Origin: Burkholderia sp. TSV86
GTDB lineage: Bacteria > Pseudomonadota > Gammaproteobacteria > Burkholderiales > Burkholderiaceae
Assembly: GCF_001522865.1 (NCBI RefSeq)
Contig: NZ_LOWB01000103.1
Location: 1-64,000, forward strand
Length of the DNA: 64,000 bases
Reading direction: 5' to 3'
In this document: one piece after another, positions 48,604 through 64,000 of the stretch
How positions within the stretch are numbered: position 1 is the stretch's first letter
How the letters are laid out: each line of letters opens with the position of its first letter
Notes under the pieces: model-generated
Seen by the model: only the letters and a program-made list of their open reading frames with translations
The model's database searches: none
What the model was told of the DNA's origin: nothing
Translations under genes and position numbers: made by a program

Positions 48604-50054
48604 TGCGCGGCGAAGATCGCACGCAGTGTCGATGCGCCGGTTGTGCCGGTCGCGAAAGCGGACCACAGCGGCGCGTCGACACGCGCAAGCCCGGGCCGCC
48701 GCGTATCGTTTGCCGCGAGCCGCAGGCGCGTCTCGCTTGCCACGCGCCGGAACGCGTCGAGCTGCATCGCCGACAGCGTGTGCTGCGCGTTCGCGAGCGC
48801 GACGAGCGGATCGACCGGCTGATCGTCGATGCGGACCTCGAAATGCAAGTGCGGCCCGGTGGCCGCGCCCGTCGAGCCCACCGCGCCGACCCGTTGCCCC
48901 TGGGCGACGGGCATGCCGACCTCGAGCCCCGGCGCGAACGCCGACAGGTGCGCGTAATAGGTCGACGTCCGATCCGGATGGTCGATCACGACGTATTTGC
49001 CGTAGCCTTCGGGATCGGTGCCGATGAACGACACGACGCCGGCCGCCGCCGCATCGACGGGCGCGCCGGCCGGCGCGACGAGATCGACGCCGGTGTGCAT
49101 CTGCAATTCCTGGGTGATCGGATGAATGCGCTCGCCGAAGTACGAACTGATGCGTGTGCTGACGACGGGCTCGACGAGCGACGGCGCATCGAGCGGCTGG
49201 CCGTCGAATGCGTAATACGCGCCGGCTGTCGCGCCCGGCGGCTTGAACCAGAGCATGCCGAATGTGCGGCCCGCGACGCGCAGATCGAGCGCGACCACGT
49301 GCGGCCGGCGCGGCGTGGCCGCATCGGGTGTATCGGCCGCGTCGGGAGCGGCCGATGTGCCCGAGTTCGGCGCGGAATCGAATGCGATCCGGTAATAGTC
49401 GCCCGGCTGCGCGCTCGCGTGCGCTTTCACGCGATTCATGATCAGATCGCCGATCTGAATGCGCACTTCAGGCGGCAGATCGATCTGGTTCAGCGTATCG
49501 GCGAGCGACTGCTCGATCGCGCCGGTGCGCACGCCGCTCGTGGCCGGCGTAAAGGCCGGGACGGCGAGCGAGAACGCGCCGACGTCGTAGCCGAGGAGTT
49601 CGCTGTGGTGTTCAGCGAGCGGCGCGAAAAGGCCCGGCCGCGCCACGCCGGACGGCGCGGGGCGGCTGGCCGGCGCGAAACCGGCGCCGGCCGGCAGCGC
49701 GTCGCCCAGCAGGTCGGGCCACGCGGCGCCCGCCTGAGCGCCGGCTGACGCCGCGCGTTGATCGATGATCTGCTCCAGCTCGGCTGTCACATAGCGCTGC
49801 GCGCTGGGGAACGGCGCGTCGGCGAGCACGCGCTGCGGCGCGCGCGCGGCATCGCGCGTTGACGTCGCGGGCGGCTTCGACACCGCTGGCAGCGCGGCGA
49901 TGCCGAATGCGATCAGCGCGCCGATCGCGCTGGCAGTGGACAACTTGCGCTTGAATGCGGGCGGGCGCGGCAACGAGGCCGACGATCCTGCGGCGTGCGC
50001 GGTTTCATCGGCGGAAACGGTATGCAAGGATGGCTTGGCCAAAAGAATCCACAT
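48588..50054 (-). CDS. M23-family metallopeptidase (LytM type), membrane-anchored
   Basis: A 488-residue envelope protein. One transmembrane anchor lies at about residues 39-58 (LSTASAIGALIAFGIAALP). The catalytic LytM domain is near residues 320-425: the first zinc ligands are in MHTGVDLVAPAGAP (HxxxD), the later ones in GPHLHFEVRI (HxH). GKYVVIDHPDRTSTYYAHLS is also typical. It probably cuts peptidoglycan cross-links or acts in envelope remodelling. The gene converges on the permease and overlaps it by 16 bases. Confidence 0.92.
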   Translation of the reverse strand: MWILLAKPSLHTVSADETAHAAGSSASLPRPPAFKRKLSTASAIGALIAFGIAALPAVSKPPATSTRDAARAPQRVLADAPFPSAQRYVTAELEQIIDQRAASAGAQAGAAWPDLLGDALPAGAGFAPASRPAPSGVARPGLFAPLAEHHSELLGYDVGAFSLAVPAFTPATSGVRTGAIEQSLADTLNQIDLPPEVRIQIGDLIMNRVKAHASAQPGDYYRIAFDSAPNSGTSAAPDAADTPDAATPRRPHVVALDLRVAGRTFGMLWFKPPGATAGAYYAFDGQPLDAPSLVEPVVSTRISSYFGERIHPITQELQMHTGVDLVAPAGAPVDAAAAGVVSFIGTDPEGYGKYVVIDHPDRTSTYYAHLSAFAPGLEVGMPVAQGQRVGAVGSTGAATGPHLHFEVRIDDQPVDPLVALANAQHTLSAMQLDAFRRVASETRLRLAANDTRRPGLARVDAPLWSAFATGTTGASTLRAIFAAHYAAS

Positions 50055-50148
50055 CCTTTAAAAATGCGTGGTTCGATCGAATAGGGGGTGGGTATGCGGC
50101 TGCGGACAGACTCGCGTCAAGCGAGCCGGCAGTGCAAGGCGTTCAACG

Positions 50149-50183
50149 TAACGGGGCACGATCTTCGTGATCGTGCCCCATTA
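50149..50183. repeat. Long hairpin-forming inverted repeat
   Basis: GTAA-C-GGGGCACGATC at 50149-50163 and GATCGTGCCCC-A-TTAC at 50169-50183 pair with one mismatch around a TTCGT loop. No T-run follows on either strand. It could act as a stem-loop terminator without T tract, an mRNA stabiliser or a protein site. Confidence 0.7.
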
Positions 50184-50187
50184 CGCC

Positions 50188-50228
50188 CCGTTCGGCCCAG
50201 CGACGCGGACCTGGTCCGCTCCGAACGG
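50188..50228. repeat. Nested inverted repeats
   Basis: An outer pair CCGTTCGG (50188-50195) / CCGAACGG (50221-50228) encloses a second, perfect pair GCGGACC-T-GGTCCGC at 50205-50219. Together with the repeat just to the left they make an 80-bp structured block. Confidence 0.6.
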
Positions 50229-50446
50229 CGACCCGGTTCCGGACGGTTGAAACCCGCCGGGTGAATCGACGCCGTACTGAGTGACAGTGCGATGCGCGCA
50301 ATTGTTCCTGACGGCGGGCGATTTTGTCCGGGTGTGGAACCTGGCGCGCATTTGATGCGCCAGGCCGTCCGAAAGGACCGCGCCGGTTGGGGCCGTCGGC
50401 CGCCGCCCGGCCGCCTGCCGCTTGCGGGTGAGCCGGATGAACCGGC

Positions 50447-51361
50447 TCACTGGCTCACCGCCGCCGCTCGCGGAGACCCAGGTTCGCCGCCGCGCGGTGG
50501 CGATGCGTCGGCGTCGAGCCTCAGCCGCGCGGCGAAGACCGCGTAGCGCGGATCGGATCGCGCGCGCCATTGAACCGTCTGGATAAATCGCGCGGAGACT
50601 GGATCAGGGGGCCGCGCTATACGCCTGAGCCGCCGGATCAAGTTCGTCTCCCGCGGCACGCGCGCCAGGTCCGCTGCCTCGGCAGCTTCAAAGCCGTGTT
50701 GCTGGAAGAACAGCGCCTGCTGAAATCCGTCTGCGCGAGGCGGGGGCGGGACGTCGATGCCCGCGATCGCTGCTGCATGGCGCGCGCTCACGCCAAGCCG
50801 ATGAAGACGCTCGAAATAGGGCCAGCCGGGCTCGTCCGGCAACGCCGACAAGCCCGCCGCGTTGGCGGCAGGCTTCGGCCGGATGCCGGCGCTCAAGAGC
50901 CGGTTCAGATAAGTCCCGTCCGATTCTCCCGGCAAACGCCCAAGCTTAGCGGCCGCGCCGCGCAAACGGGCCGGCAGCGCGTCGAGATCGCCCGTTTCGT
51001 AATTGCCGATCAACGTGAGTTTCTTGGGGCGGCTGAAATGCCCGCTCGACAACAGTTGCCGCAACTCGGTGCGGTCCGTGATCAGCAGCGCCGCGTTGTT
51101 CTCGGCGGCCTGTTTCAACCGGGAGTGAGCGACGCGCATGTTTTTGCGCCCGTCCGGGCCGGCGTGGCCGGCGATTTTCGTCAAGATTTCGGCCGGAAGA
51201 TCCGTTATCCGTCTGGCGCTCGGGCGGGAAAGCTCCGCGAGGCTCGGCGACGCCGTTGGCTGCGCCGGGCAAGGCGCGGGCGCGCCGCGCGTGATCCCGG
51301 CGGCGGGCGGGAGAGCAGACGCTGGCGCAAGTGCAGGCGGGCAGGGTGTGGATGGTTTCAT
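50447..51361 (-). CDS. F-box-like domain protein, possible secreted effector
   Basis: A 304-residue soluble protein. Residues 1-50 are Pro/Ala/Ser-rich and probably disordered. Residues 51-93 read RITDLPAEILTKIAGHAG then GRKNMRVAHSRLKQAAENNA, which fits the F-box pattern LPxEIL-xxI...V-xxR-L. After it comes LTLIGNYETGDLDALPARLRG, vaguely leucine-rich-repeat-like, and an Arg/Ala-rich helical rest. F-box proteins dock to Skp1 in eukaryotic ubiquitin ligases; bacteria with such domains usually deliver them into host cells. GAGG precedes the ATG. No secretion signal can be proven, and the domain call rests on one motif. Confidence 0.6.
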   Translation of the reverse strand: MKPSTPCPPALAPASALPPAAGITRGAPAPCPAQPTASPSLAELSRPSARRITDLPAEILTKIAGHAGPDGRKNMRVAHSRLKQAAENNAALLITDRTELRQLLSSGHFSRPKKLTLIGNYETGDLDALPARLRGAAAKLGRLPGESDGTYLNRLLSAGIRPKPAANAAGLSALPDEPGWPYFERLHRLGVSARHAAAIAGIDVPPPPRADGFQQALFFQQHGFEAAEAADLARVPRETNLIRRLRRIARPPDPVSARFIQTVQWRARSDPRYAVFAARLRLDADASPPRGGEPGSPRAAAVSQ

Positions 51362-51558
51362 GAGGGCCTCGAATTCGGACGACGCACGATACGCGCGCCG
51401 ATGCCCGCGGCGGGCCGCCCGTGCGAAAAAGGGCGGGGCCGGTGCGAAATGACGCGGCTCGCTTGGCGGTGCATCGGCTTGGGTCTGTGCTTGGGCTCGG
51501 GCCTGAGCCTAAACCTGAGCCCCGGCCCGCGCGCCATCGCGCCGTCGCGCCATCGCCG

Positions 51559-52224
51559 TCAGTCCGCGCGTGCGTGCCGAGGCGGCGCATCGGCGTCGCG
51601 CAGCCGCAGCGCGGCGGACGTGCGCAACGTATCGATGCCCGCGTCCAGCATCGCGTCGGCGTCGCGCCAGCGATCGCCGCGCAGACGGGTGGTCCAGATC
51701 ATCGAGCCGAAGATGCCTTCGAGCAGCGACAGGAAATACACGCCGGCCAGATGGATATCGAGCGCGGCATTGAGTTCGCCCGACGTCACCGCGCGCCGCA
51801 ACAGGGCCTTGGCGATCCTGAGCGTCTGCAGTTCGTACAGCGCGCGCCGGCGCAGCACCGGCGCGTTTTCGTCGCTTTGCTCGCACTTCAGGTAGAGGAT
51901 TTCGAGCACGCGCTGCATCGAGCCGGGCTCGCCGCACTGATGCAGATAGTGCGATGCGGCCAGGCGCAGCGTGTGCAGCGCGGGCCGCTCGTCGGACAAT
52001 TCGAAGCCCGCGACCGCGCGCGAGAACGCCCGGTCGCACATCGCGACGCACACCTCGATCTTGTTCTTGAAATGCCCATATATCGCACCGCGCGACATGC
52101 CGGCCGCTTCCGCGAAATCGGCCATCGCGGTTTGCCCGATCCCTTTTTCAAGCAGCACGAGTTCGGCGGCGTCGAGAATCCGATGCTTCGTGTTCAGTGA
52201 TTCTTCACGCGTTTTGCGGGCCAT
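51559..52224 (-). CDS. amrR: TetR-family repressor of the AmrAB-OprA pump
   Basis: A 221-residue TetR regulator. The DNA-binding part is TKHRILDAAELVLLEKGIGQTAMADFAEAAGMSRGAIYGHFKNK (HTH at about 28-52; FAEAAGMSRGAIYGHFKNK is the recognition region). The C-terminal domain has helices around LHTLRLAASHYLHQ and YLKCEQSDENAPVLRRR, like AcrR/AmrR. It is divergent from amrA with a 137-bp gap that holds a 20-bp palindrome. Mutation of such repressors typically raises pump expression in relatives; here this is family knowledge. Confidence 0.92.
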   Translation of the reverse strand: MARKTREESLNTKHRILDAAELVLLEKGIGQTAMADFAEAAGMSRGAIYGHFKNKIEVCVAMCDRAFSRAVAGFELSDERPALHTLRLAASHYLHQCGEPGSMQRVLEILYLKCEQSDENAPVLRRRALYELQTLRIAKALLRRAVTSGELNAALDIHLAGVYFLSLLEGIFGSMIWTTRLRGDRWRDADAMLDAGIDTLRTSAALRLRDADAPPRHARAD

Positions 52225-52293
52225 GTGGGTCGATTCTCCCTTGCTTTCGAATGGTTGTCGCTTTCTTGCGACATGCTGTCAATCAGGAGTATT

Positions 52294-52313
52294 TAATCAA
52301 TCGTGACTGATTA
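52294..52313. promoter_or_regulatory. Candidate AmrR operator
   Basis: TAATCAATCGTGACTGATTA is a 20-bp inverted repeat (9-bp arms, one mismatch, GT centre) between the divergent amrR and amrA genes, about 50 bp before the amrA start. A palindrome of this size at this place fits a TetR-family operator controlling both genes. Confidence 0.65.
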
Positions 52314-52361
52314 TAATCGATCGCCCTGACCGGCTCCCATTCGCGCGGGGTCGAATGAATC

Positions 52362-53537
52362 ATGAGGAAAACAATGACAGACCGACGGGCGCGCACGCGC
52401 CGAATCTGGCTGGCGTTCGCCGTCGCGGCGCTGGCCGCCGGCTGCGGCAAACACGATGACGGCGACGCGGCCGCGCCGCGCGATGCGGCCGTGGTGACGG
52501 TTGCCAAGACGCCGGTGCCGCTGACGGTCGAACTACCGGGCCGGCTCGACGCGTACCGGCAGGCCGAAGTGCGGGCGCGGGTCGCGGGCATCGTCACGGC
52601 GCGAACCTATGAAGAGGGGCAGGAGGTCAAGCGCGGCGCCGTGCTGTTCAGGATCGATCCCGCGCCGTTCAAGGCGGCGCGCGATGCGGCGGCCGGCGCG
52701 CTCGAGAAGGCGCAGGCCGCATATCTCGCCGCGCAGGACAAGCGCCGCCGCTACGACGATCTGGTGCGCGACCGGGCGGTCAGCGAGCGCGACCATACCG
52801 AGGCGCTAGCCGACGAGCGTCAGGCGCGCGCCGCCGTCGCGTCCGCGCGTGCCGAGCTGGCGCGCGCGCAGTTGCAGCTCGGCTACGCGAGCGTCACCGC
52901 GCCGATCGACGGCCGCGCGCGCCGCGCGCTCGTCACGGAGGGCGCGCTCGTCGGCCAGGATCAGGCCACGCCGCTCACGACCGTCGAGCAGCTCGATCCG
53001 ATTTACGTGAACTTCTCGCAGCCGGCCGCCGAGGTCGAGGCGCTGCGGCGCGCGGTGAAAAGCGGCCGCGCGGCGGGCATCGCGCAGCAGGACGTCGAGG
53101 TGACGCTGATACGCCCGGATGGCAGCGTGTACGAGCGCAAGGGCAAATTGCTGTTCGCGGATCTCGCGGTCGATCCGTCCACCGACACGGTCGCGATGCG
53201 CGCGCTTTTTCCGAACCCCGAGCGTGAATTGCTGCCGGGCGCGTATGTGCGCATCGCGCTCGATCGCGCGATCGAGCGCGATGCGGTGCTCGTGCCGCGC
53301 GACGCGCTGCTGCGCACGGCCGACGGCGCGAGCGTCAAGGTCGTCGACGCGAACGGCAAGGTGCGCGACGTGGCGGTCGACGCGTCGCGAATGAAGGGCG
53401 GTGACTGGATCGTCACGCGCGGGCTGGCCGGCGGCGAGCGCGTCGTCGTGAGCGACGCCGCGCAATTCGACGCGGGCGCGAGCGTGAAGGCGCTCGAGCG
53501 CGCCGCCGCCGCGCGGCCGGCTTCGGCGCCGCGCTAA
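52362..53537 (+). CDS. amrA: RND efflux periplasmic adaptor AmrA
   Basis: A 391-residue membrane-fusion lipoprotein. The lipobox is LAAGC with Cys28. The family start TVELPGRLDAYRQAEVRARVAGIV and the lipoyl/hairpin segments GQEVKRGAVLFRIDPAPFKAA and LQLGYASVTAPIDGRARRAL are typical of AcrA/MexA. It bridges the AmrB pump and OprA. A second ATG 12 bases downstream is possible. It is divergent from amrR and followed by amrB after 24 bp. Confidence 0.95.
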   Translation: MRKTMTDRRARTRRIWLAFAVAALAAGCGKHDDGDAAAPRDAAVVTVAKTPVPLTVELPGRLDAYRQAEVRARVAGIVTARTYEEGQEVKRGAVLFRIDPAPFKAARDAAAGALEKAQAAYLAAQDKRRRYDDLVRDRAVSERDHTEALADERQARAAVASARAELARAQLQLGYASVTAPIDGRARRALVTEGALVGQDQATPLTTVEQLDPIYVNFSQPAAEVEALRRAVKSGRAAGIAQQDVEVTLIRPDGSVYERKGKLLFADLAVDPSTDTVAMRALFPNPERELLPGAYVRIALDRAIERDAVLVPRDALLRTADGASVKVVDANGKVRDVAVDASRMKGGDWIVTRGLAGGERVVVSDAAQFDAGASVKALERAAAARPASAPR

Positions 53538-53561
53538 ATCTGACAAGCATCGTTTTCGATC

Positions 53562-56500
53562 ATGGCTCGATTCTTTATCGATCGCCCGATATTCGCGTGG
53601 GTGATCTCGCTATTCATCATGATGGGCGGCATCTTCGCGATCCGCGCGCTGCCCGTGGCCCAGTATCCGGACATCGCGCCGCCCGTGGTCAGCATTTATG
53701 CGACCTATCCGGGCGCGTCCGCGCAGGTCGTCGAGGAATCGGTCACGGCGGTGATCGAGCGCGAGATGAACGGCGTGCCCGGCCTGCTGTACACGTCGGC
53801 GACGAGCAGCGTCGGCCAGGCGGCGCTGTATCTGACGTTTCGCCAGGGCGTGAGCGCCGATCTGGCGGCCGTCGATGTCGAGAACCGTCTGAAGACCGTC
53901 GAATCGCGGCTGCCCGAGCCGGTGCGGCGCGACGGCATTTCGATCGAGAAGGCCGCCGACAACACGCAGATCGTCGTGTCGCTGACCTCGGAGGACGGGC
54001 GGCTGTCGGCCGTGCAGCTCGGCGAGTACGCATCGGCGAACGTGGTGCAGGCGTTGCGCCGTGTCGACGGCGTCGGCAAGGTGCAGTTCTGGGGCGCCGA
54101 ATATGCGATGCGGATCTGGCCCGATCCGCTCAAGATGGCCGCGCTCAATCTGACGGCTTCCGACATCGCGTCGGCGGTGCGCGCGCACAATGCGCGCGTG
54201 ACGATCGGCGACATTGGCCGCAGCGCGGTGCCGGATAGCGCGCCGATCGCGGCGACCGTGCTCGCCGACGCGCCGCTGGCCACTCCCGAGGCGTTCGGCG
54301 CGATCGCGCTGCGCGCCCGCGCCGACGGCTCGGCGCTGTATCTGCGCGATGTCGCGAAAGTCGAATTCGGCGGCAGCGACTACAACTATCCGTCGTTCGT
54401 CAACGGCAAGACGGCGGTCGGCATGGGCATCAAGCTGGCGCCGGGCTCGAACGCGGTGGCCACCGAAAAGCGCGTGCGCGCGACGATGGACGAACTGTCG
54501 AAGTACTTCCCGGCGGGCGTCAAGTACCAGATTCCGTACGAGACGTCGTCGTTCGTGCGCGTGTCGATGAGCAAGGTCGTGACGACGCTGATCGAGGCGG
54601 GCGTGCTGGTGTTCGCCGTGATGTTCCTGTTCATGCAGAACCTGCGCGCGACGCTGATTCCGACGCTCGTCGTGCCCGTCGCGCTGCTCGGCACGTTCGG
54701 CGTGATGCTCGCCGCGGGTTTTTCGATCAACGTGCTGACGATGTTCGGGATGGTGCTCGCGATCGGCATCCTGGTCGACGACGCGATCGTCGTCGTCGAG
54801 AACGTCGAGCGGCTGATGGTCGAGGAGAAGCTGCCGCCCTACCAGGCGACCGTGAAGGCGATGAAGCAGATCAGCGGCGCGATCATCGGCATTACCGTGG
54901 TGCTGACGTCGGTGTTCGTGCCGATGGCGTTCTTCGGCGGCGCGGTCGGCAACATCTATCGGCAGTTCGCGCTGGCGCTCGCGGTGTCGATCGGTTTCTC
55001 GGCGTTTCTCGCGTTGTCGCTGACGCCCGCGTTGTGCGCGACGCTGCTCGCGCCGGTTGCCGCCGACCATCACGACAAGCGCGGCTTCTTCGGCTGGTTC
55101 AACCGCTTCGTCGCGCGCGCGACGAACCGTTATACGCAGCGCGTGGGCGCCGTGCTGAAGCGGCCGCTGCGCTGGCTTGCCGTGTACGGCGCGCTGACGG
55201 CGGCCGCGGCGCTGTTGCTCACGCACCTGCCGAGCGCGTTCCTGCCGGACGAGGACCAGGGCAACTTCATGGTGATGGTGGTTCATCCGCAAGGCACGCC
55301 GCTGGCGGAAACGATGAAGAGCGTGCAGCGCGTCGAGCAATACGTGCGCCGCGAGGAGCCGAGCGCGTACACGTTCGCGCTCGGCGGCTTCAATCTGTAC
55401 GGCGAAGGGCCGAACGGCGGGATGATCTTCGTCACGCTGAAGGACTGGAAGCTGCGCAAGCGCGCGCACGACCAAGTGCAGGCGATCGTCGAGCGGATCA
55501 ACGCGCGCTTTGCGGGCACGCCGAATACGACCGTCTTCGCGATGAATTCGCCCGCGCTGCCCGACCTGGGCTCGACGAGCGGCTTCGACTTGCGTTTGCA
55601 GGATCGCGGCGGACTCGGCCACGAAGCGCTCGTCGCCGCGCGCGAGAAACTGCTCGCCGAGGGGCGCAAGGACGCCGCGTTGACCGACCTGATGTTCGCC
55701 GGCACGCAGGATGCGCCGCAACTGAAGCTCGATATCGATCGCGCGAAGGCGTCGGCGCTCGGCGTGTCGATGGACGAAATCAACACGACGCTGGCGGTGA
55801 TGTTCGGCTCCGACTACATCGGCGATTTCATGCACGGCGCGCAGGTGCGGCGCGTGGTGGTGCAGGCGAACGGGCAGCACCGGCTCGATCCCGACGACGT
55901 GACGAAGCTGCGCGTGCGCAACGCGAAGGGCGAGATGGTGCCGCTTTCCGCGTTCGCCAAGCTGCGCTGGACGCTGGGGCCGCCGCAGTTGACCCGCTAC
56001 AACGGTTTCCCGTCGTTTACGATCAACGGCTCGGCCGCCGAGGGGCGCAGCAGCGGCGACGCGATGGCGGCGATCGAGCGGATCGCGGCGAAGCTGCCTG
56101 CCGGCATCGGCCACGCGTGGTCCGGGCAGTCTTACGAGGAGCGGCTGTCGGGCGCGCAGGCGCCGATGCTGTTCGCGTTGTCGGTGCTCGTCGTGTTCCT
56201 CGCGCTCGCGGCGCTCTATGAGAGCTGGTCGATTCCGTTCGCAGTGATGCTCGTCGTGCCGCTCGGCGTGATCGGCGCCGTGACGGGCGTCGTGCTGCGC
56301 GGGATGCCCAACGATATTTATTTCAAGGTGGGACTGATCGCGACGATCGGGTTGTCGGCGAAGAACGCGATCCTGATCGTCGAGGTCGCGAAGGATCTGG
56401 TCGCGCAGGGCTCGCCGCTCGTCGAAGCGGCGCTCGAAGCGGCGCGGCTGCGGCTGCGGCCGATCGTGATGACGTCGCTCGCGTTCGGCGTGGGCGTGCT

Positions 56501-56693
56501 GCCGCTCGCATTCGCGTCCGGCGCGGCGTCGGGCGCGCAGGTGGCGATCGGCACCGGCGTGCTTGGCGGCGTGATCAGCGCGACGCTGCTGGCGATCTTT
56601 CTTGTCCCGCTCTTTTTCGTCTGCGTCGGCCGTGCGTTCGACGTCCGCCCGCGCCGCCGAGGCGATGCGCAGGCTTGGGAGACTCAGTCATGA
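53562..56693 (+). CDS. amrB: RND efflux inner-membrane transporter AmrB
   Basis: A 1043-residue HAE1-family pump with 12 helices and two large periplasmic loops. MARFFIDRPIFAWVISLFIM is the family start. The proton relay is seen as the Asp pair in GILVDDAIVVVENVER (TM4) and the Lys in GLSAKNAILIVEVAKDL (TM10). Pumps of this type (AmrAB-OprA) export aminoglycosides and macrolides in the B. pseudomallei group. The gene overlaps oprA by 4 bases. Confidence 0.97.
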   Translation: MARFFIDRPIFAWVISLFIMMGGIFAIRALPVAQYPDIAPPVVSIYATYPGASAQVVEESVTAVIEREMNGVPGLLYTSATSSVGQAALYLTFRQGVSADLAAVDVENRLKTVESRLPEPVRRDGISIEKAADNTQIVVSLTSEDGRLSAVQLGEYASANVVQALRRVDGVGKVQFWGAEYAMRIWPDPLKMAALNLTASDIASAVRAHNARVTIGDIGRSAVPDSAPIAATVLADAPLATPEAFGAIALRARADGSALYLRDVAKVEFGGSDYNYPSFVNGKTAVGMGIKLAPGSNAVATEKRVRATMDELSKYFPAGVKYQIPYETSSFVRVSMSKVVTTLIEAGVLVFAVMFLFMQNLRATLIPTLVVPVALLGTFGVMLAAGFSINVLTMFGMVLAIGILVDDAIVVVENVERLMVEEKLPPYQATVKAMKQISGAIIGITVVLTSVFVPMAFFGGAVGNIYRQFALALAVSIGFSAFLALSLTPALCATLLAPVAADHHDKRGFFGWFNRFVARATNRYTQRVGAVLKRPLRWLAVYGALTAAAALLLTHLPSAFLPDEDQGNFMVMVVHPQGTPLAETMKSVQRVEQYVRREEPSAYTFALGGFNLYGEGPNGGMIFVTLKDWKLRKRAHDQVQAIVERINARFAGTPNTTVFAMNSPALPDLGSTSGFDLRLQDRGGLGHEALVAAREKLLAEGRKDAALTDLMFAGTQDAPQLKLDIDRAKASALGVSMDEINTTLAVMFGSDYIGDFMHGAQVRRVVVQANGQHRLDPDDVTKLRVRNAKGEMVPLSAFAKLRWTLGPPQLTRYNGFPSFTINGSAAEGRSSGDAMAAIERIAAKLPAGIGHAWSGQSYEERLSGAQAPMLFALSVLVVFLALAALYESWSIPFAVMLVVPLGVIGAVTGVVLRGMPNDIYFKVGLIATIGLSAKNAILIVEVAKDLVAQGSPLVEAALEAARLRLRPIVMTSLAFGVGVLPLAFASGAASGAQVAIGTGVLGGVISATLLAIFLVPLFFVCVGRAFDVRPRRRGDAQAWETQS

Positions 56694-58405
56694 TCAAACG
56701 CGCATCGGGCCGCGAGCGCGGCCTGACGATGCCGCCGGCGCGCGGCGCATGGCCGGCCGCGCTCGCGGCCGCGCTGCTGGCGGGCTGCTCGCTCGCGCCG
56801 CGCTACGAGCGGCCGGCGGCGCCGGTGCCGGCGAGTTATCCGGCGTATCCGGCGTATCCGGCGCAACAGGCGCAACAGGCGCAACAGGCGCAACAGGCGC
56901 ACGCGCCGGATGCGGCCAGCGGCGCGGGCGCCGCGCGGCCGCCGGCCGCGCACGGCGGCCAAGCGCCGGATGCCTCGCCGGTATCCGCCGGAGCGCACCC
57001 GTCTGACGCGCGGCCCGCATCCGAGGGGCCGCACGCATTCGCCGCGCGACAAACGCGCGATGCCGCGCAACCGCCGCACGAGCGCCAGGCGGCCGCGGTT
57101 CGGCTTGCGATGGCTGCCGGGCATGCACCGGATGCGCGGCTTGACGACTGGCGCGCGTATTTCACCGATCCGTCGCTGCGCGCGCGGATCGACGCCGCGC
57201 TCAAGAACAATCGCGACCTGCGGATCGCGACGCTGCGTATCCAGGAGGCGCGCGGCATGTACGGCGTCGTGCGTGCGGACCGGCTGCCGTCGATCGACGG
57301 CAATCTTGGCTATGAGCGTGCCCGCCAGTACGACCCGGTGCTGCGCGAAAGCGCGACGAGCGGGCTGTATCGCGCGGGCGTGGGAGTGAGCGCGTTCGAG
57401 ATCGATCTGTTCGGCCGCGTGAAAAACCTGTCCGACGCGGCGCTTGCCGAGTATTTCGCGACTACCGAGGCGCGGCGTGCCGTGCTCATCAGCCTGATCG
57501 CGGAGGTGGCGTCCGCTTATGTGACGGAGCGCGCGCTCGTCGAGCAACTCGCGCTTGCCGAGCGCACGTTCGCCGCGCGCGAATTGGCTCGCGCGCTGAC
57601 GCAGCGGCGCTATGACAGCGGCACGAGCACGGCCATCGAGCTGCGCACGGCGCAAATGCTCGTGGCGTCGGCCAGTGCGTCGCGCGCGGCGCTCGCGCGC
57701 GAGCATGCGCAGGCGGTGCACGCGTTGCAACTGCTGGCGGGCGATTTCGAGACGCCAAGCTCAGCCGATGCGCGCCCGCTCGACGAGTGGATGGTCGCGC
57801 CGATCGCGCCGGGGCTGTCGTCGGATCTGATCGAGCAGCGGCCCGACATCCGGCAGGCCGAGCAGCGGCTGATCGCGGCGAACGCGAATATCGGCGCGGC
57901 GCGCGCGGCATTTTTTCCGCGTATCGCGCTGACGACCGAAATCGGTTCGATCAGCGATACGTTCGCGGGCTTGTTCTCGGCCGGCGCGGGCGTTTGGACG
58001 TTCGCGCCGAAGCTGACGCTGCCGATCTTCGCGGGCGGGCGCAACCGCGCGAACCTCGACGTGGCCGACGCGCGCGCGCATATCGCAGTGGCGGAATACG
58101 AAAAGGCGATCCAGATCGCGTTTCGCGAAGTCGCCGATACGCTTGCGGCGCGCGATCAGATAGACGCGCAGCTCGATGCGCAGCGAGCCGTCTACGATGC
58201 GGACGCCGAGCGGCTGAGGCTTGCGCAGCGGCGCTATCAGCACGGCGTCGCGAATTATCTGGAGTTGCTCGACGCGCAGCGCAGCACGTTCGAGTCGGGC
58301 CAGGAACTGATTCGTCTGAAGCAATTGCGCTTGACCAATGCGATCGCACTGTATCGCGCGCTCGGCGGCGGCTGGTCGCGCTCGGCGAGGGACGGCGCGG
58401 CATAG
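56690..58405 (+). CDS. oprA: RND efflux outer-membrane channel OprA, with repeat-rich insert
   Basis: A 571-residue outer-membrane factor lipoprotein. The lipobox is ALLAGC with Cys33, followed by APRYERPAAPVPASY. A low-complexity insert at about residues 50-150 contains (YPA)3 and (QQA)4 and more Ala/Pro/His-rich sequence before the barrel/tunnel part resumes at DDWRAYFTDPSLRARIDAAL. The conserved EIDLFGRVKNLSDAALAEY and RRYQHGVANYLELLDAQRS are present. This insert makes it longer than typical OprM/OprA proteins. Start set by ATGA overlap with amrB. Confidence 0.93.
   Translation: MIKRASGRERGLTMPPARGAWPAALAAALLAGCSLAPRYERPAAPVPASYPAYPAYPAQQAQQAQQAQQAHAPDAASGAGAARPPAAHGGQAPDASPVSAGAHPSDARPASEGPHAFAARQTRDAAQPPHERQAAAVRLAMAAGHAPDARLDDWRAYFTDPSLRARIDAALKNNRDLRIATLRIQEARGMYGVVRADRLPSIDGNLGYERARQYDPVLRESATSGLYRAGVGVSAFEIDLFGRVKNLSDAALAEYFATTEARRAVLISLIAEVASAYVTERALVEQLALAERTFAARELARALTQRRYDSGTSTAIELRTAQMLVASASASRAALAREHAQAVHALQLLAGDFETPSSADARPLDEWMVAPIAPGLSSDLIEQRPDIRQAEQRLIAANANIGAARAAFFPRIALTTEIGSISDTFAGLFSAGAGVWTFAPKLTLPIFAGGRNRANLDVADARAHIAVAEYEKAIQIAFREVADTLAARDQIDAQLDAQRAVYDADAERLRLAQRRYQHGVANYLELLDAQRSTFESGQELIRLKQLRLTNAIALYRALGGGWSRSARDGAA
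56837..56899 (+). repeat. In-frame 9-bp tandem repeats in oprA
   Basis: Three perfect copies of TATCCGGCG (56837-56863) are followed by four perfect copies of CAACAGGCG (56864-56899). Both units are nine bases, so copy-number change keeps the reading frame and only alters the count of YPA and QQA triplets. Confidence 0.95.
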
Positions 58406-58522
58406 GCGCGGGCCGCGCGCGCCACGGCGACGACGCGAAATTGCCAAATCCGGTAAGGTATCGGGTTGCGCCGTTGAGATGGCATGGCGCAACGCACATC
58501 AACAGACGGAAAGGGCAATGCA

Positions 58523-59746
58523 GTGAGGATTCGAATCGGACGATGGGCGGCGGCCATCGCGCTGGGCGCGCCGCTTGGCTTGGCGCTCGCGCAGTCTACG
58601 CAGCCGGTTGACGCGGCGCGGGCGGCTGAGTTGGCTGCGGCATCCGCCGCGGCGCAGATGCCGCGGCCCGCTCAGGCGTTTGGCTCAGCGCAGGCACCGG
58701 GGAGCATTCCGGCATCCGCGGCGGCTCAATTGCCCGAGCCCGCTCAGGCGCCGCAGCCGGCCCAACCGCCGGAGGAGCCTGCCCACGCGAGCGCCACACG
58801 CGGCACGCTCGCCGCGTCGTGGATGCTGCGCAGCACTGCGCCTGCCCAGCCGACGCCGCCCGCCGACGCGTCGGCGGGCATTCCGGTCGGCCCGTCGATG
58901 CAGACGGTCGATCTCGGCGGCACGTCGCTGCCGGTATTCACGTATCGGCCCGCGCGATGCGCGCCGTCGGTACTGTTGTTGGTCTTTCACGGGATGAGCC
59001 GCAACGGCGCCGAGTATCGCGATGCCGCGACGCCGCTGGCCGAGCGTATCTGCGCGATTACCGTCGCGCCGCAATTCGACGAGTCGCGCTTTCCGGACGC
59101 GCTCTATCAGCATGGCGGCGTGACGCCCGCGCCCGCCTTCGGTTCGCTGCCCGCCGCGCCGCTGCCTGGCGGCGCGCGTCCGATCGATCTGGTGCCGCGG
59201 CTCGCCGGCTGGGCGCAGCGCGCCGCCGGCGCGCCGGCGTTGCAGGTGGTGCTGCTCGGCCATTCGGCGGGCGCGCAATTTCTCGACCGCGTCGCCGCGT
59301 ACTCGCAGCCGGGCGCGGCGCGGATCGTGCTCGCCAATCCGGGTACGTGGGTGATGCCGAATTCGACTGCCACCGCGCCTTACGGTTTCGGCGGCCTCGG
59401 CTCGGCGCGCCGTCAAGAGGCGGCGCTGCGTGCGTATTTGGCGCAGCCCGTCACGGTGCTGCTCGGCATGGACGACGTGAAAGGCAACCGGCTCGCGCAC
59501 GGCGCCGAAGCCGACGCACAGGGCCCGACCCGCCTTGCGCGCGGGCTGCACGCGTTCCAGACGGCGCAGGCGGCGGCGCGCAGCCGTGGCTGGACGTTCG
59601 GCTGGCGGCTGCTCGAAGTGCGCGGCGTCGGCCACGACGTCGCGCGGATGTTCGCGTCCGACGAAGCGGTGCGCGCGGTCCAGAGCGCGCATCATCCGCT
59701 CGTGTGCGGCGATGGCCGGGCGGTGCCGGCCGGTTCGGCCTGCTGA
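58523..59746 (+). CDS. Secreted alpha/beta hydrolase family protein
   Basis: A 407-residue protein from a GTG start at 58523, which gives a clean signal peptide (RIRIGRWAAAIALGAPLGLALA); an ATG at 58484 is an alternative. Residues about 25-115 are a Pro/Ala/Gln-rich linker. The catalytic domain follows: LLLVFHGMSRNGAEYRD (oxyanion region), GHSAGAQFL with the nucleophile Ser, and GVGHDVARMF with the likely catalytic His. It resembles poly-hydroxyalkanoate-depolymerase/esterase-like hydrolases. Substrate unknown. It lies between oprA and the cap genes and converges on capD. Confidence 0.8.
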   Translation: MRIRIGRWAAAIALGAPLGLALAQSTQPVDAARAAELAAASAAAQMPRPAQAFGSAQAPGSIPASAAAQLPEPAQAPQPAQPPEEPAHASATRGTLAASWMLRSTAPAQPTPPADASAGIPVGPSMQTVDLGGTSLPVFTYRPARCAPSVLLLVFHGMSRNGAEYRDAATPLAERICAITVAPQFDESRFPDALYQHGGVTPAPAFGSLPAAPLPGGARPIDLVPRLAGWAQRAAGAPALQVVLLGHSAGAQFLDRVAAYSQPGAARIVLANPGTWVMPNSTATAPYGFGGLGSARRQEAALRAYLAQPVTVLLGMDDVKGNRLAHGAEADAQGPTRLARGLHAFQTAQAAARSRGWTFGWRLLEVRGVGHDVARMFASDEAVRAVQSAHHPLVCGDGRAVPAGSAC

Positions 59747-59952: not shown

Positions 59953-61797
59953 TCACGCCTTTGCGTCGGCGTGCTCGGGCTGGCGGCGCCAGAACGCCCG
60001 ATATTCGTCGCACGTGTCGGCAAGGCGCCGGTGCGGGCCCGCCGCGACGAGCCGCCCGCCGGCCAGGAACAGCACCTGGTCGGCCGCCTCGACGTTCGCG
60101 ATCCGGTGGGTGATCAGCACGAGCGTGGTCCGCTTGCCGAGGCGCTCGCGCAGCATCGCGATGCCGAGCGTGTCGCTGTGCGGGTCGAGCCCCGATGTCG
60201 TTTCGTCGAGGACGATGGCGGGAACATCGACGCCCATCAGCCTGACGAGTTCGACCTTCTGCACCTGGCCGCCGGACAGGCGCGCGCCGCCTTCGCCGAC
60301 GTCGCCGTCGAGATCGATGCGCTGGCCGTCGTCGTGGAACGTGAGGCGTTCGAGCAGCCGGATCGCGTCGTCGTCGGCGAGCGTCGACGGATGGTAGCGG
60401 ACGTTTTCCCGCAACGAGCGGTTCAGCAGCGCGACGTTCTGCGGTACGTACAGCGCGAAGCGGTGGCGCGCACCGTCGTCGATGCCGTACAGGTCGACGC
60501 CGCTGTACGCGACCACGCCCGCGTCGGGCGGCAGCAGCCCCGCGACGATCTTCGCGAGCGTGGACTTGCCCGAGCCGTTGTGCCCGACGATCGCCGTGTA
60601 GCTGCCCGCCGGCAAATCGAACGACATCGGCTCGATCGCGAAGCGCCCGGCCCGGGCAAGCGCGAGCCGGCGCACCGCGATGTGCGCGGCCGAGCTGCCC
60701 GGGCGCGGCGCCGCGACCGCGCCGCTGTCGCCGCGGTTCTCGCGCGGCGCGATCGCGAGCGCCTCGCGCACGTTCGCGAGCGCCGCGCCCGCCTGGCGCA
60801 GCACGAAACCGTACGCGCCGAGCGGCAGCGCGAATTGCAGCACATACGTTTGCAGCAGCATGAAATCGCCGAGCGTGATCCGGTGAGCGGCGATGTCGCG
60901 CACGCACAGCACGAACATCGCGGCCATGCCGAGTGCGATGATGCCGTACTGATAGGCGGCCGCGCGCGTGAGCAGCCACGATCGGCGCCAGTCGACGTCG
61001 AGCCGGGCGATGGCGCGCGCCGCGACGTAGTCGATCTCCTGTGGCACCGCGCCGTTGTAGACGACGCGCGGCGCGTTCGCGAGCACGTCGCCGAGCGCCG
61101 CCGACAGCGCGCCCGCGGCCTCGTTCGTCGCGGCCGCGCTGGTTTCGTACCGCTCGGCCGACAGGTGAGAAAACACAAAGTAGGCGGCCAGCACCGCAAA
61201 CAGGATCGCCGCGTATCGAAGCGGCACGAGCAGCGCGATCAGCACGAGCGCGACGACGATCTGGAGCGCCACCGGCGTGATTTTCCACAGCACGCCTTCG
61301 ATGATCACCTGCAGGCTGTACGGCAGACGCTCGAGCAGGCCCTGCACGTAGCCGCTGTCGCTCGACGCGCGGCCGGCAAGCGCCGGCAGCTGCGCATGCA
61401 GCGCGCGGCGCAGCAGCATATTCGATGTGGCATGCACGATTCTGCCCGTGTACGCGAGCAGCGCGATCGACGAGATCGCGGACGCGGACCAGAGCACGGC
61501 GAACAGCACGATGTAGACGGAAGCCTTCGTCGCGTCGAACTGCGCGCGCGACATCTCGTCGACGGCGAGCTTCAACGTAACCGGGCCGAGCAGCATGAAG
61601 GCCGACGTCAGCGCCTCAATCAGCACACCGGCGACGATTAGCTTTCGCGCGCGCGTTTCGTAGTCGACCATCAGGCGGACGACGTCCGCCAACGAGCGTA
61701 GTGCGGCAAGCTTCATGACGATTCGCGGTCGGGCCGGCAAGCCGGCGGTTCGAATGACGGCGGCGCTGGATGCGGCCGCGTGCGCGCCGCCGGGCAT
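59953..61797 (-). CDS. capD: Lasso peptide ABC exporter (CapD/McjD-like)
   Basis: A 614-residue fused ABC exporter: six helices (residues ~50-330), then ATPase with Walker A GHNGSGKSTLAKI, signature LSGGQVQKVELVRL, Walker B AIVLDETTSGLDP and switch His ITHRIANVE. Its place right after capC (16 bp) and the McjD-like start MKLAALRSLADVVRLMVDYE fit the exporter and immunity protein of a lasso peptide cluster. The first 27 residues before that Met are low-complexity, so the true start may be 61716. Together with capB and capC the assignment is strong. Confidence 0.85.
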   Translation of the reverse strand: MPGGAHAAASSAAVIRTAGLPARPRIVMKLAALRSLADVVRLMVDYETRARKLIVAGVLIEALTSAFMLLGPVTLKLAVDEMSRAQFDATKASVYIVLFAVLWSASAISSIALLAYTGRIVHATSNMLLRRALHAQLPALAGRASSDSGYVQGLLERLPYSLQVIIEGVLWKITPVALQIVVALVLIALLVPLRYAAILFAVLAAYFVFSHLSAERYETSAAATNEAAGALSAALGDVLANAPRVVYNGAVPQEIDYVAARAIARLDVDWRRSWLLTRAAAYQYGIIALGMAAMFVLCVRDIAAHRITLGDFMLLQTYVLQFALPLGAYGFVLRQAGAALANVREALAIAPRENRGDSGAVAAPRPGSSAAHIAVRRLALARAGRFAIEPMSFDLPAGSYTAIVGHNGSGKSTLAKIVAGLLPPDAGVVAYSGVDLYGIDDGARHRFALYVPQNVALLNRSLRENVRYHPSTLADDDAIRLLERLTFHDDGQRIDLDGDVGEGGARLSGGQVQKVELVRLMGVDVPAIVLDETTSGLDPHSDTLGIAMLRERLGKRTTLVLITHRIANVEAADQVLFLAGGRLVAAGPHRRLADTCDEYRAFWRRQPEHADAKA

Positions 61798-61813
61798 GCG
61801 GCGAAACGGTGCG

Positions 61814-63547
61814 TCAGCATATCGCAGCGCGCCGGTTCGCGATGAAATTCTGCCAGGACGCGCAGAATACCTCCACGCATCCGACGAGCGCGACGCTGAT
61901 CGCGGCCGCGTTCTGTCCGACGCGCGCGGCCTTGAACGCGCGCTCGAGTTCCGCTTCGTCGAGCCTGCCGCTGCGCATCAGCACGCCGTCGCGAATCAGC
62001 TCGCGCAATGCGCCGTCATGCGACACGATGCCCTTCACGAAGCTGATGCCGAACGATCCCTTGGTTCTGCGCCACAGCACGTCGACGGGAGTGTGGGCCG
62101 AGGCGATCTCGCGCAGCACGATCCGGTCGTTGCGGTGATCGAAGCTGTCGTAGCTGCGCAGCCCGAACGCGGCCTCGACGACCGGTTGCGCGAGATACGG
62201 ATTGAGCCGTCTCGTGTACGCGGCGTCGGTGACGGGCGTCATGATCGACACGAACCGATCGAGCATCGAGATCGACTCGTCGAGCGTCTGCCGCGGCGCG
62301 CGCGCACGTGACCGTCCGGCCGGCGCGCGCGGCGCGAACAGCGTGGACATCGATTGCCGCGGCGCCGGCGCGTGCTGCGCGAACAACTGCCGCCTCAGCG
62401 CGATCTTCGCGGCCATCAGCAGGACGCGCGGAATCGAATCGTTGTGCAGCATCGCGAGCTTTTCTGCCGTGCGCAGCGCGCACGCCCATCCGTTGCCGTG
62501 CAGCGCGTCGAGCACCACGCTCGCGTCGGGCACCGCCCGGAACAGCAGATCGCCGCCCTGGCCTTCGAGCAGCACCGCCGACGGACCGATCGCCTTCGAC
62601 ACCGCGCGGTCGATGCCCAAGAACAGCATGTCCTGGCTCAGCGCGGCGGGTGGAGTTTTCACGAGGCGCTCGGAGAACGGCAAATGGCGGTCGATGTCGA
62701 TGCACACCAGCTCCGCGCCGATCGAATCGGCGACGCGCGCGGCCATGTCCCGCTCGTAGCAGTCCGGCGATGACGTGGAGAACAGGTGGACGGCGGCGAG
62801 CGGTGCGCCCGCGCCGAGCGCCTTGCGCAGAAGGATCGCGCCCGCGGACGAATCGACGCCGCCCGACAGTGCGGCGCACACGCTCGGATGGCTGCGCGCG
62901 AGGCTCGAATAGACGTCGTCGAGCGCCGTCGCGCACGACGCGCGAATGTCGTCCGTGGCTGGCGCGCGTGGCAGCCACGCGCGCTCGATCGTGCATCGTC
63001 CGTCGGCGTCGACGGCGAGCGCGCATCCGGGCGGCACCACGCGGACCGACGCGAATGGCGTTTCGTCGAGCGCACCGAACTGCGTGCACGCGAATTCGAT
63101 CAGGTAATCGAGGTTCCAGTCGATCGGCGCGCCGTCGAGCAGATTCGCCGCTTGCGGATCGACGTCGACGCGCCCGGGTCCTTGCGTGCGGTAATAGAGC
63201 CGGACCGAATGCAGTGGATCGGGCAGGAACACGCGCCGGCCGGTTGCCGCTTCGTCGAGCACAAGCAGGTACGCGCCCCACACGGAGCGCGTGACGGCGT
63301 CGCGCGCTTCAGACAGCGTGCGCGCGTGCGCGAGCGCCTGCTCGAGGCTCGAGCGCGCGCCGCGCAGGTAGGCGTGGGCGCGGCCGCCGGCTTCGAGCAG
63401 TGTCACGCCGATCGGCCGATCGGGACCGGCCGAGGAGGACAGCACGCAGCGGTAACCGTGCGCGTTCGTCCATGTACGGCCGTCAAGCCGCCAGCCCGAC
63501 CGGGGCGGCGCGTTCGTCGTGTCGAGGCGTTCGATAGATTTCGCCAT
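61814..63547 (-). CDS. capC: Lasso peptide macrolactam synthetase (CapC, asparagine synthetase-like)
   Basis: A 577-residue asparagine-synthetase-B homologue. The PP-loop for ATP is CAALSGGVDSSAGAILLRK at about residue 225-243, and VLLEGQGGDLLFRAVPD follows. The N-terminal glutaminase-like part lacks the Cys at position 2 that true asparagine synthetases use, as expected for lasso cyclases, which adenylate an Asp or Glu side chain of the precursor and close the ring with the N-terminal amine. It overlaps capB by 65 bases and is followed by capD. Confidence 0.88.
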   Translation of the reverse strand: MAKSIERLDTTNAPPRSGWRLDGRTWTNAHGYRCVLSSSAGPDRPIGVTLLEAGGRAHAYLRGARSSLEQALAHARTLSEARDAVTRSVWGAYLLVLDEAATGRRVFLPDPLHSVRLYYRTQGPGRVDVDPQAANLLDGAPIDWNLDYLIEFACTQFGALDETPFASVRVVPPGCALAVDADGRCTIERAWLPRAPATDDIRASCATALDDVYSSLARSHPSVCAALSGGVDSSAGAILLRKALGAGAPLAAVHLFSTSSPDCYERDMAARVADSIGAELVCIDIDRHLPFSERLVKTPPAALSQDMLFLGIDRAVSKAIGPSAVLLEGQGGDLLFRAVPDASVVLDALHGNGWACALRTAEKLAMLHNDSIPRVLLMAAKIALRRQLFAQHAPAPRQSMSTLFAPRAPAGRSRARAPRQTLDESISMLDRFVSIMTPVTDAAYTRRLNPYLAQPVVEAAFGLRSYDSFDHRNDRIVLREIASAHTPVDVLWRRTKGSFGISFVKGIVSHDGALRELIRDGVLMRSGRLDEAELERAFKAARVGQNAAAISVALVGCVEVFCASWQNFIANRRAAIC

Positions 63548-64000
63548 AGCTTTTTTTCAGATCCGGTTCGTCACCGTATACGCGCCCGTCGACCTCGACC
63601 CATGCATGGGCGACAAACGGCATCGGCCTCACGCCGATCACCAGTTGAGCGGGCACGCGCTCGCGCCTCAGGTGTGTGGCGAGCGCGAACGACATTTGCA
63701 GGCACGTGATGCGAAAGGGCGACCAAATCGACGCGCGAAGATAGCGCTCGACCGTGCGCGACGGGCCGTCGCCGGCGTGCGCGCGTTGCCCGGCGCCCGC
63801 GGCGGACCTGTCCAGCCGATCGAGTGCCGAGAGCGCGCGAAAGCCGCGAATTTTCAGCGACGCCGCGCTGCGCACGATGCGCCAGAATGGCAGCCACTCG
63901 AAGCCGCCCGTGCGCCGCTCGCCGAGCGTGCGGCTTGCCCAGACGCCCGAATCGAACGCGTCGAATCCCCATCCGCGGTAGTCGGCGACGCGGCCCGGCA
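63483..64000 (-). CDS. capB: Lasso peptide leader protease (CapB, transglutaminase-like), 5' truncated
   Basis: The frame is open to the right edge and gives about 172 C-terminal residues. The catalytic Cys is in PFRITCLQMSFALATHLRR, the His in PMPFVAHAWVEVDGRVYGD with an Asp after it, the triad of the McjB/CapB transglutaminase-like protease that removes the leader peptide. The upstream part (AFDSGVWASRTLGERR) belongs to the same frame. B and C parts appear fused in one gene, as in capistruin and microcin J25 clusters. The start and the precursor gene capA lie beyond 64000. Confidence 0.85.
   Translation of the reverse strand, partial: PGRVADYRGWGFDAFDSGVWASRTLGERRTGGFEWLPFWRIVRSAASLKIRGFRALSALDRLDRSAAGAGQRAHAGDGPSRTVERYLRASIWSPFRITCLQMSFALATHLRRERVPAQLVIGVRPMPFVAHAWVEVDGRVYGDEPDLKKSYGEIYRTPRHDERAAPVGLAA

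What the first reader, a model, noticed from the sequence alone, without database searches (positions are those of the whole stretch)
59953..64000. Capistruin-type lasso peptide biosynthesis genes at the window edge
Three minus-strand genes encode a Cys-His-Asp leader protease, an asparagine-synthetase-like cyclase without the glutaminase Cys, and a McjD-like exporter, with a 65-bp overlap and then a 16-bp gap. This is the B-C-D part of a class II lasso peptide cluster (capistruin in B. thailandensis; family knowledge). The peptide itself is set by capA, which is just outside the window, so it cannot be said whether the product is capistruin or a new variant.
Basis: partly seen in the sequence, partly recalled or inferred. 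Interest (0 to 1): 0.8.

Follow-up and report, generated by a model that had tools for sequence, protein, structure and literature searches.

The report
Capistruin lasso peptide gene cluster
These genes make capistruin, a small knotted antibiotic peptide already known from Burkholderia, and the peptide gene just past the window edge encodes exactly the published sequence, so the finding is right but ordinary.

Summary
The contig runs on past base 64000. There, 61 bases before capB's first ATG, lies a 47-codon minus-strand gene, capA (contig 64282-64425). Its last 19 residues, GTPGFQTPDARVISRFGFN, are letter for letter the published capistruin sequence (PMC6963729). The locus is a complete capABCD cluster, contig 59953-64425. 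The expected product is capistruin itself, not a new variant.

Of 65 genomes of the genus, four including this one carry close CapC proteins; the other three are 83-84% identical. Two of those three encode the same core, the third an Ala10-to-Asn variant. All four keep the 65-base capB/capC overlap. A genome 94.9% identical in one flank lacks the cluster; a sugar-uptake-like operon sits there, beside a short stretch resembling the end of capD.

Small additions: capB probably starts 12 bases later than its first ATG; a hairpin lies between capA and capB; a more distant capistruin-like precursor exists in Trinickia. None of these changes the verdict: already known, low interest.

The parts
63483..64000 (-). 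capB, leader-peptide protease (transglutaminase-like B2 domain in its C-terminal part). It runs on past the window end to contig 64220 (first ATG) or, more likely, starts at 64208. Further upstream, also past the window end: hairpin at contig 64221-64241 and capA, the 47-aa capistruin precursor, at contig 64282-64425, both on the minus strand.
   Evidence: capB; capA (L009:6283-6426), core identical to published capistruin; hairpin
61814..63547 (-). capC, asparagine-synthetase-like macrolactam cyclase, SGGVDSS at residue 228
59953..61797 (-). capD, ABC exporter with fused membrane and ATPase domains
   Evidence: Walker A 405, LSGGQ 507, Walker B 528

Best explanation
A complete, apparently intact capistruin cluster capABCD on the minus strand at contig 59953-64425. 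Ribosomes make the 47-residue CapA. CapB, a cysteine protease, removes the 28-residue leader after Thr-His. CapC activates the side chain of core Asp9 with ATP and joins it to the amino group of Gly1, closing a 9-residue ring around the tail. CapD exports the product and so probably protects the producer. Outside, the peptide enters related Gram-negative bacteria and blocks their RNA polymerase. Shown here: the genes, their family assignments, active-site residues, the core identity, and conservation. Taken from papers on B. thailandensis capistruin (passages): ring size, CapD's proposed role, target. Recalled: the chemistry of CapB and CapC. Inferred: that this strain expresses it.
For: CapA core is identical to capistruin as printed in PMC6963729, which also states a 47-aa precursor, a 9-residue ring and a capABCD cluster of 4.5 kb; here the four genes span 4473 bases. 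CapB passes the NCBIfam lasso_biosyn_B2 cut-off. CapB of this genome has the Arg-Gly-Trp that PMC6784204 gives as the capistruin form of a B-protein motif; G021 has Arg-Ala-Trp there. Across the four cap-bearing genomes, 8 of 19 core codons vary silently only and 1 of 19 varies in amino acid, against 4 and 6 of 28 in the leader: the core looks held by selection. Overlap of 65 bases kept in 4 of 4.
Against: CapC is far below the curated cut-offs of the two lasso-type cyclase models it hits (89.6 bits against 300, 44.9 against 525), so membership rests on context and the core, not on those models. The 25 NCBIfam models shown of 181 for CapD are general ABC transporters, all below cut-off; McjD was not among the 60 solved chains shown of 222. 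No expression or product data.
Confidence: 0.97

Rival explanations
1. The cluster is silent, or decayed in a way not visible in the sequence, and makes nothing in this strain.
For: A closely related genome (G039) lacks it and keeps only a stretch resembling the end of capD, so loss may occur in this lineage.
Against: All four frames are open with the expected active-site residues, and the core shows silent changes only against 2 of 3 relatives.
Confidence: 0.1
2. The product is a lasso peptide that differs from capistruin by tailoring or a different cleavage site.
For: None found; the leader differs from relatives at 2 to 4 of 28 residues.
Against: Core and the last eleven residues of the leader are identical in 4 of 4 genomes apart from core residue 10 of G036; the four frames leave no room between them for a further enzyme gene.
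Confidence: 0.03

Closest known systems
Capistruin, capABCD of Burkholderia thailandensis E264
   Same: Core sequence, precursor length, gene set A-B-C-D (PMC6963729, passages).
   Different: No call gave the E264 proteins, so they were not compared.
CapBCD of B. pseudomallei (BPSL1795-1797)
   Same: Named a capistruin-like cluster in PMC10100664 (passages); PMC6963729 says the 4.5 kb cluster is conserved there (passage).
   Different: Sequence not compared here.
Microcin J25, mcjABCD of Escherichia coli
   Same: Same kind of four-gene cluster and RNA polymerase as target (PMC6963729, passages).
   Different: Different peptide; Mcj proteins were not aligned here.
Capistruin-like locus of Trinickia diaoshuihuensis (L018)
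   Same: CapB 54% identical; precursor core GRPGFQTPDGRVVSRTGLK is recognisably similar.
   Different: 6 of 19 core residues differ (counted); no paper of the library prints this core as one string.

Membership tests
Capistruin (class II lasso peptide) | 19-residue core GTPGFQTPDARVISRFGFN in a 47-aa precursor | tested here: met
   against PMC6963729
Capistruin (class II lasso peptide) | Gly1 and an Asp/Glu at core 7-9, Thr at leader position -2, no Cys in core | tested here: met
   Gly1, Asp9, leader end ...SSTH, no Cys; the Thr -2 rule is recalled
Lasso peptide cluster | B2-type leader protease with Cys-His-Asp | tested here: met
   NF033537 83.4 bits over cut-off 33; Cys173, His205, Asp211
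Lasso peptide cluster | Asparagine-synthetase-like cyclase with ATP-PPi loop, lacking the glutaminase Cys2 | tested here: met
   PF00733 above cut-off, NAD_synthase below, no glutaminase family; SGGVDSS at 228, first Cys at 34; but far below the cut-offs of the lasso-type cyclase models
Lasso peptide cluster | Dedicated ABC exporter, McjD-like | tested here: inconclusive
   ABC exporter with Walker A, signature and Walker B; no direct comparison with McjD
Capistruin (class II lasso peptide) | Threaded lactam product that inhibits RNA polymerase | not testable with these tools
   needs product

The most novel reading that the evidence does not exclude
The hairpin between capA and capB, kept in all four cap-bearing genomes, may act as a partial terminator or RNA-processing barrier that makes much more precursor than enzyme; and the cap locus may be an exchange site where a whole antibiotic cluster was swapped for a sugar-uptake operon in a sister lineage, leaving an end of capD as a scar.
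Probability: 0.4. Interest if true: 0.25.

Novelty: already known. Interest (0 to 1): 0.1.

Why it matters
It extends an already described antibiotic cluster to one more genome. It also shows the mature peptide kept unchanged in three of four genomes while CapC (83-84% identity) and CapB (78-85%) drift. The closely related genome without the cluster is a natural comparison for asking what capistruin does for its producer. It opens no new kind of biology.

Tried and rejected
Rejected: a new lasso variant (core identical to the published one). Not relied on: the promoter scan upstream of capA found 3 matches (0.8 expected, sd 0.8), two of them overlapping on capA's strand, but these end only about 14-16 bases before its ATG, which leaves little room for a start site and a ribosome site. 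Its one terminator-like site (2.0 expected) is on the other strand, away from the cluster. Led nowhere: CapB against solved structures gave 0 matches and CapC one weak QatC match; CapD gave 222 chains, 60 shown, nearly all named as ABC exporters; CapC against plasmids gave 9 records, the best 32.1% identical (Rhizobium). The hairpin's support is modest: z -1.77, 10 of 200 shuffles fold as well; one compensatory pair, and 118 of 500 shuffles reach that. Paper searches on a hairpin in lasso clusters gave 0 papers with all five terms and 10 papers for two terms, seen as a listing only, so I cannot say whether such a hairpin is in print. I could not name the species: the genus name Burkholderia is inferred from the core and papers, not from a call.

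Papers seen: PMC10100664, PMC6784204 and PMC6963729, passages only. Every other paper, PMC12427821 included, was seen as a listing. PMC6347699 is not held. The string searches find a sequence only if printed unbroken.

Full report
Observation. The window is bases 1-64000 of a 157,783-base contig (C103) in a 5.82-Mb genome of 135 contigs. The overlap of capB and capC is 65 bases and the gap to capD 16 bases.

Families. CapB hits Pfam Transglut_core3 and NCBIfam lasso_biosyn_B2, both above their cut-offs. CapC hits Pfam Asn_synthase above cut-off, NAD_synthase below cut-off, and no glutaminase domain. Among NCBIfam its best hit is the albusnodin/ikarugamycin macrolactam cyclase model at 89.6 bits, far under its cut-off of 300; the general lasso cyclase model gives 44.9, under 525. 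CapD hits ABC_tran above cut-off and ABC_membrane at 27.8 against 28; of its 181 NCBIfam matches the 25 shown are all under their cut-offs. CapB has Cys173, His205 and Asp211; CapC has SGGVDSS at 228 and its first Cys at 34; CapD has Walker A, LSGGQ and Walker B.

The missing part. Reading on past 64000 (L009) gives the rest of capB and, 61 bases before its first ATG, a 47-codon gene at contig 64282-64425: MVRFLAKLLRSTIQGSNGVSLDAVSSTH followed by GTPGFQTPDARVISRFGFN. PMC6963729 (passages) prints capistruin as GTPGFQTPDARVISRFGFN, cut from a 47-aa precursor, with a 9-residue ring, made by capABCD. The match is complete, so the product at sequence level is capistruin. The search of the library for the core string found 2 papers: PMC12427821 (listing only) and PMC6963729. 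CapA itself has no Pfam or NCBIfam match up to E = 1.

Start of capB. In the alignment of five CapB sequences the second ATG of this genome (contig 64208) aligns with a Met in all five, while the first ATG (64220) does not. I take 64208 as the likelier start (241 aa).

Relatives. CapC was sought in 65 genomes of the genus: 8 match at E 1e-20 or better, of which 4 are close (own; G017, G021, G036 at 83-84%) and 4 are remote (24-27%). CapB was sought in 398 genomes drawn from the family: 5 match at 1e-30, the same four and one of another genus. That one, G176, has a match at the same coordinates as Trinickia diaoshuihuensis NZ_QUBS01000089.1, so it is very likely the same locus. The named-genome scan returned 13 loci, none titled Burkholderia; the tool says near records may be left out. 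CapC in plasmids: 9 records, best 32.1%. Precursors: the core is identical in own, G017 and G021, has Asn for Ala10 in G036, and reads GRPGFQTPDGRVVSRTGLK in Trinickia, 6 of 19 residues different. Each of the four remote loci (4 of 4) has a different, lasso-like precursor by pattern near its cyclase; the same script listed 4 further pattern matches in 3 of these loci (one in L035, one in L036, two in L037) that I set aside because they lie on the other strand. The five cores other than capistruin's are in no paper of the library as unbroken strings.

Selection. Over the four close genomes, 8 of 19 core codons change silently only and 1 of 19 changes the residue; in the leader 4 of 28 change silently only and 6 of 28 change the residue. 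The 65-base overlap is kept in 4 of 4.

Place in the chromosome. On the capD side, the window's flank 53.3-58.4 kb, with the outer-membrane efflux gene, matches beside the cap genes of G017, and 209 bases of it match at the very edge of the stretch fetched from G021. In G036 no such match was seen in the about 5.5 kb fetched beyond the cap genes. On the capA side, sequence that begins 3.6 kb from capA here lies 9.6-10.0 kb from capA in G017, G021 and G036. So the site is shared on both sides for G017 and G021 and on one side for G036.

A relative without the cluster. G039 matches the window at 94.9% over 50001-59207 and has no close cap genes: its CapC match is 26% identical and elsewhere, CapB has none at 1e-30, CapA only E = 1.68. 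The flank is split there over two contigs, C131 and C11, whose ends meet inside the hydrolase gene. On C11, between the hydrolase end and the other flank, lie about 9 kb with frames that read, by eye and not by a family search, as an AraC-type regulator, a sugar-binding protein, sugar ABC ATPase and permease, a dehydrogenase, a sugar kinase and a short-chain dehydrogenase. A stretch of about 85 bases there aligns with the 3' end of capD in the expected place (score 24; the best of 100 simple shuffles 14). The simplest reading is loss of the cluster by replacement in G039; other histories are not excluded.

Hairpin. Directly before capB's first ATG, contig 64221-64241, is a 9-pair stem with a 3-base loop. 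Over four genomes 94.4% of 36 cells pair; one pair is changed on both sides in one genome, and the innermost pair fails in two. Shifted stems pair in 36-61% of cells, but 118 of 500 shuffles reach the covariation score, and 10 of 200 shuffled sequences fold as well. Its support beyond general conservation is modest, and a role in keeping precursor above enzymes is inference.

Verdict. A true and correctly interpreted finding whose open end is now closed: capistruin, already known.

Noticed in passing
contig 65382-67757 (L009:7383-9758, +), past the window end: 791-aa frame next to capA, divergent from it; residues 613-755 resemble an OspG/NleH-type kinase domain (Pfam OspG_kinase 41.7 bits over cut-off 27, Kdo kinase 23.6 over 21.3; NCBIfam NleH 49.7, under 450). 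Possibly an injected effector; described only.
   Followed up: partly
window 58484-59746 (+): 420-aa frame convergent with capD, no Pfam or NCBIfam match at 0.001, by eye an alpha/beta hydrolase; 9 of 65 genus genomes, this one included, match at 1e-20. G017 has about 110 bases at this place instead.
   Followed up: partly
window 56675-58405 (+): NodT-type outer-membrane efflux protein (TIGR01845 364.3 bits over cut-off 210.05), with a further flank conserved in G017 up to 53.3 kb.
   Followed up: no
L033:7781-7924: Capistruin variant with Asn in place of Ala at core position 10 in genome G036.
   Followed up: partly
L018:7795-7926 and after: Capistruin-like precursor in Trinickia diaoshuihuensis; its CapC frame is interrupted in the record, the longest open piece found being 323 codons. 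Not mended.
   Followed up: partly
L034:9694-9825, L035:8574-8705, L036:8584-8715, L037:9064-9195 (-): Four loci of the genus with remote CapC relatives carry another kind of lasso-like precursor, with cores such as GTRGGSILEIGAWVYKF; those of L036 and L037 are identical. None is in a library paper as an unbroken string.
   Followed up: no
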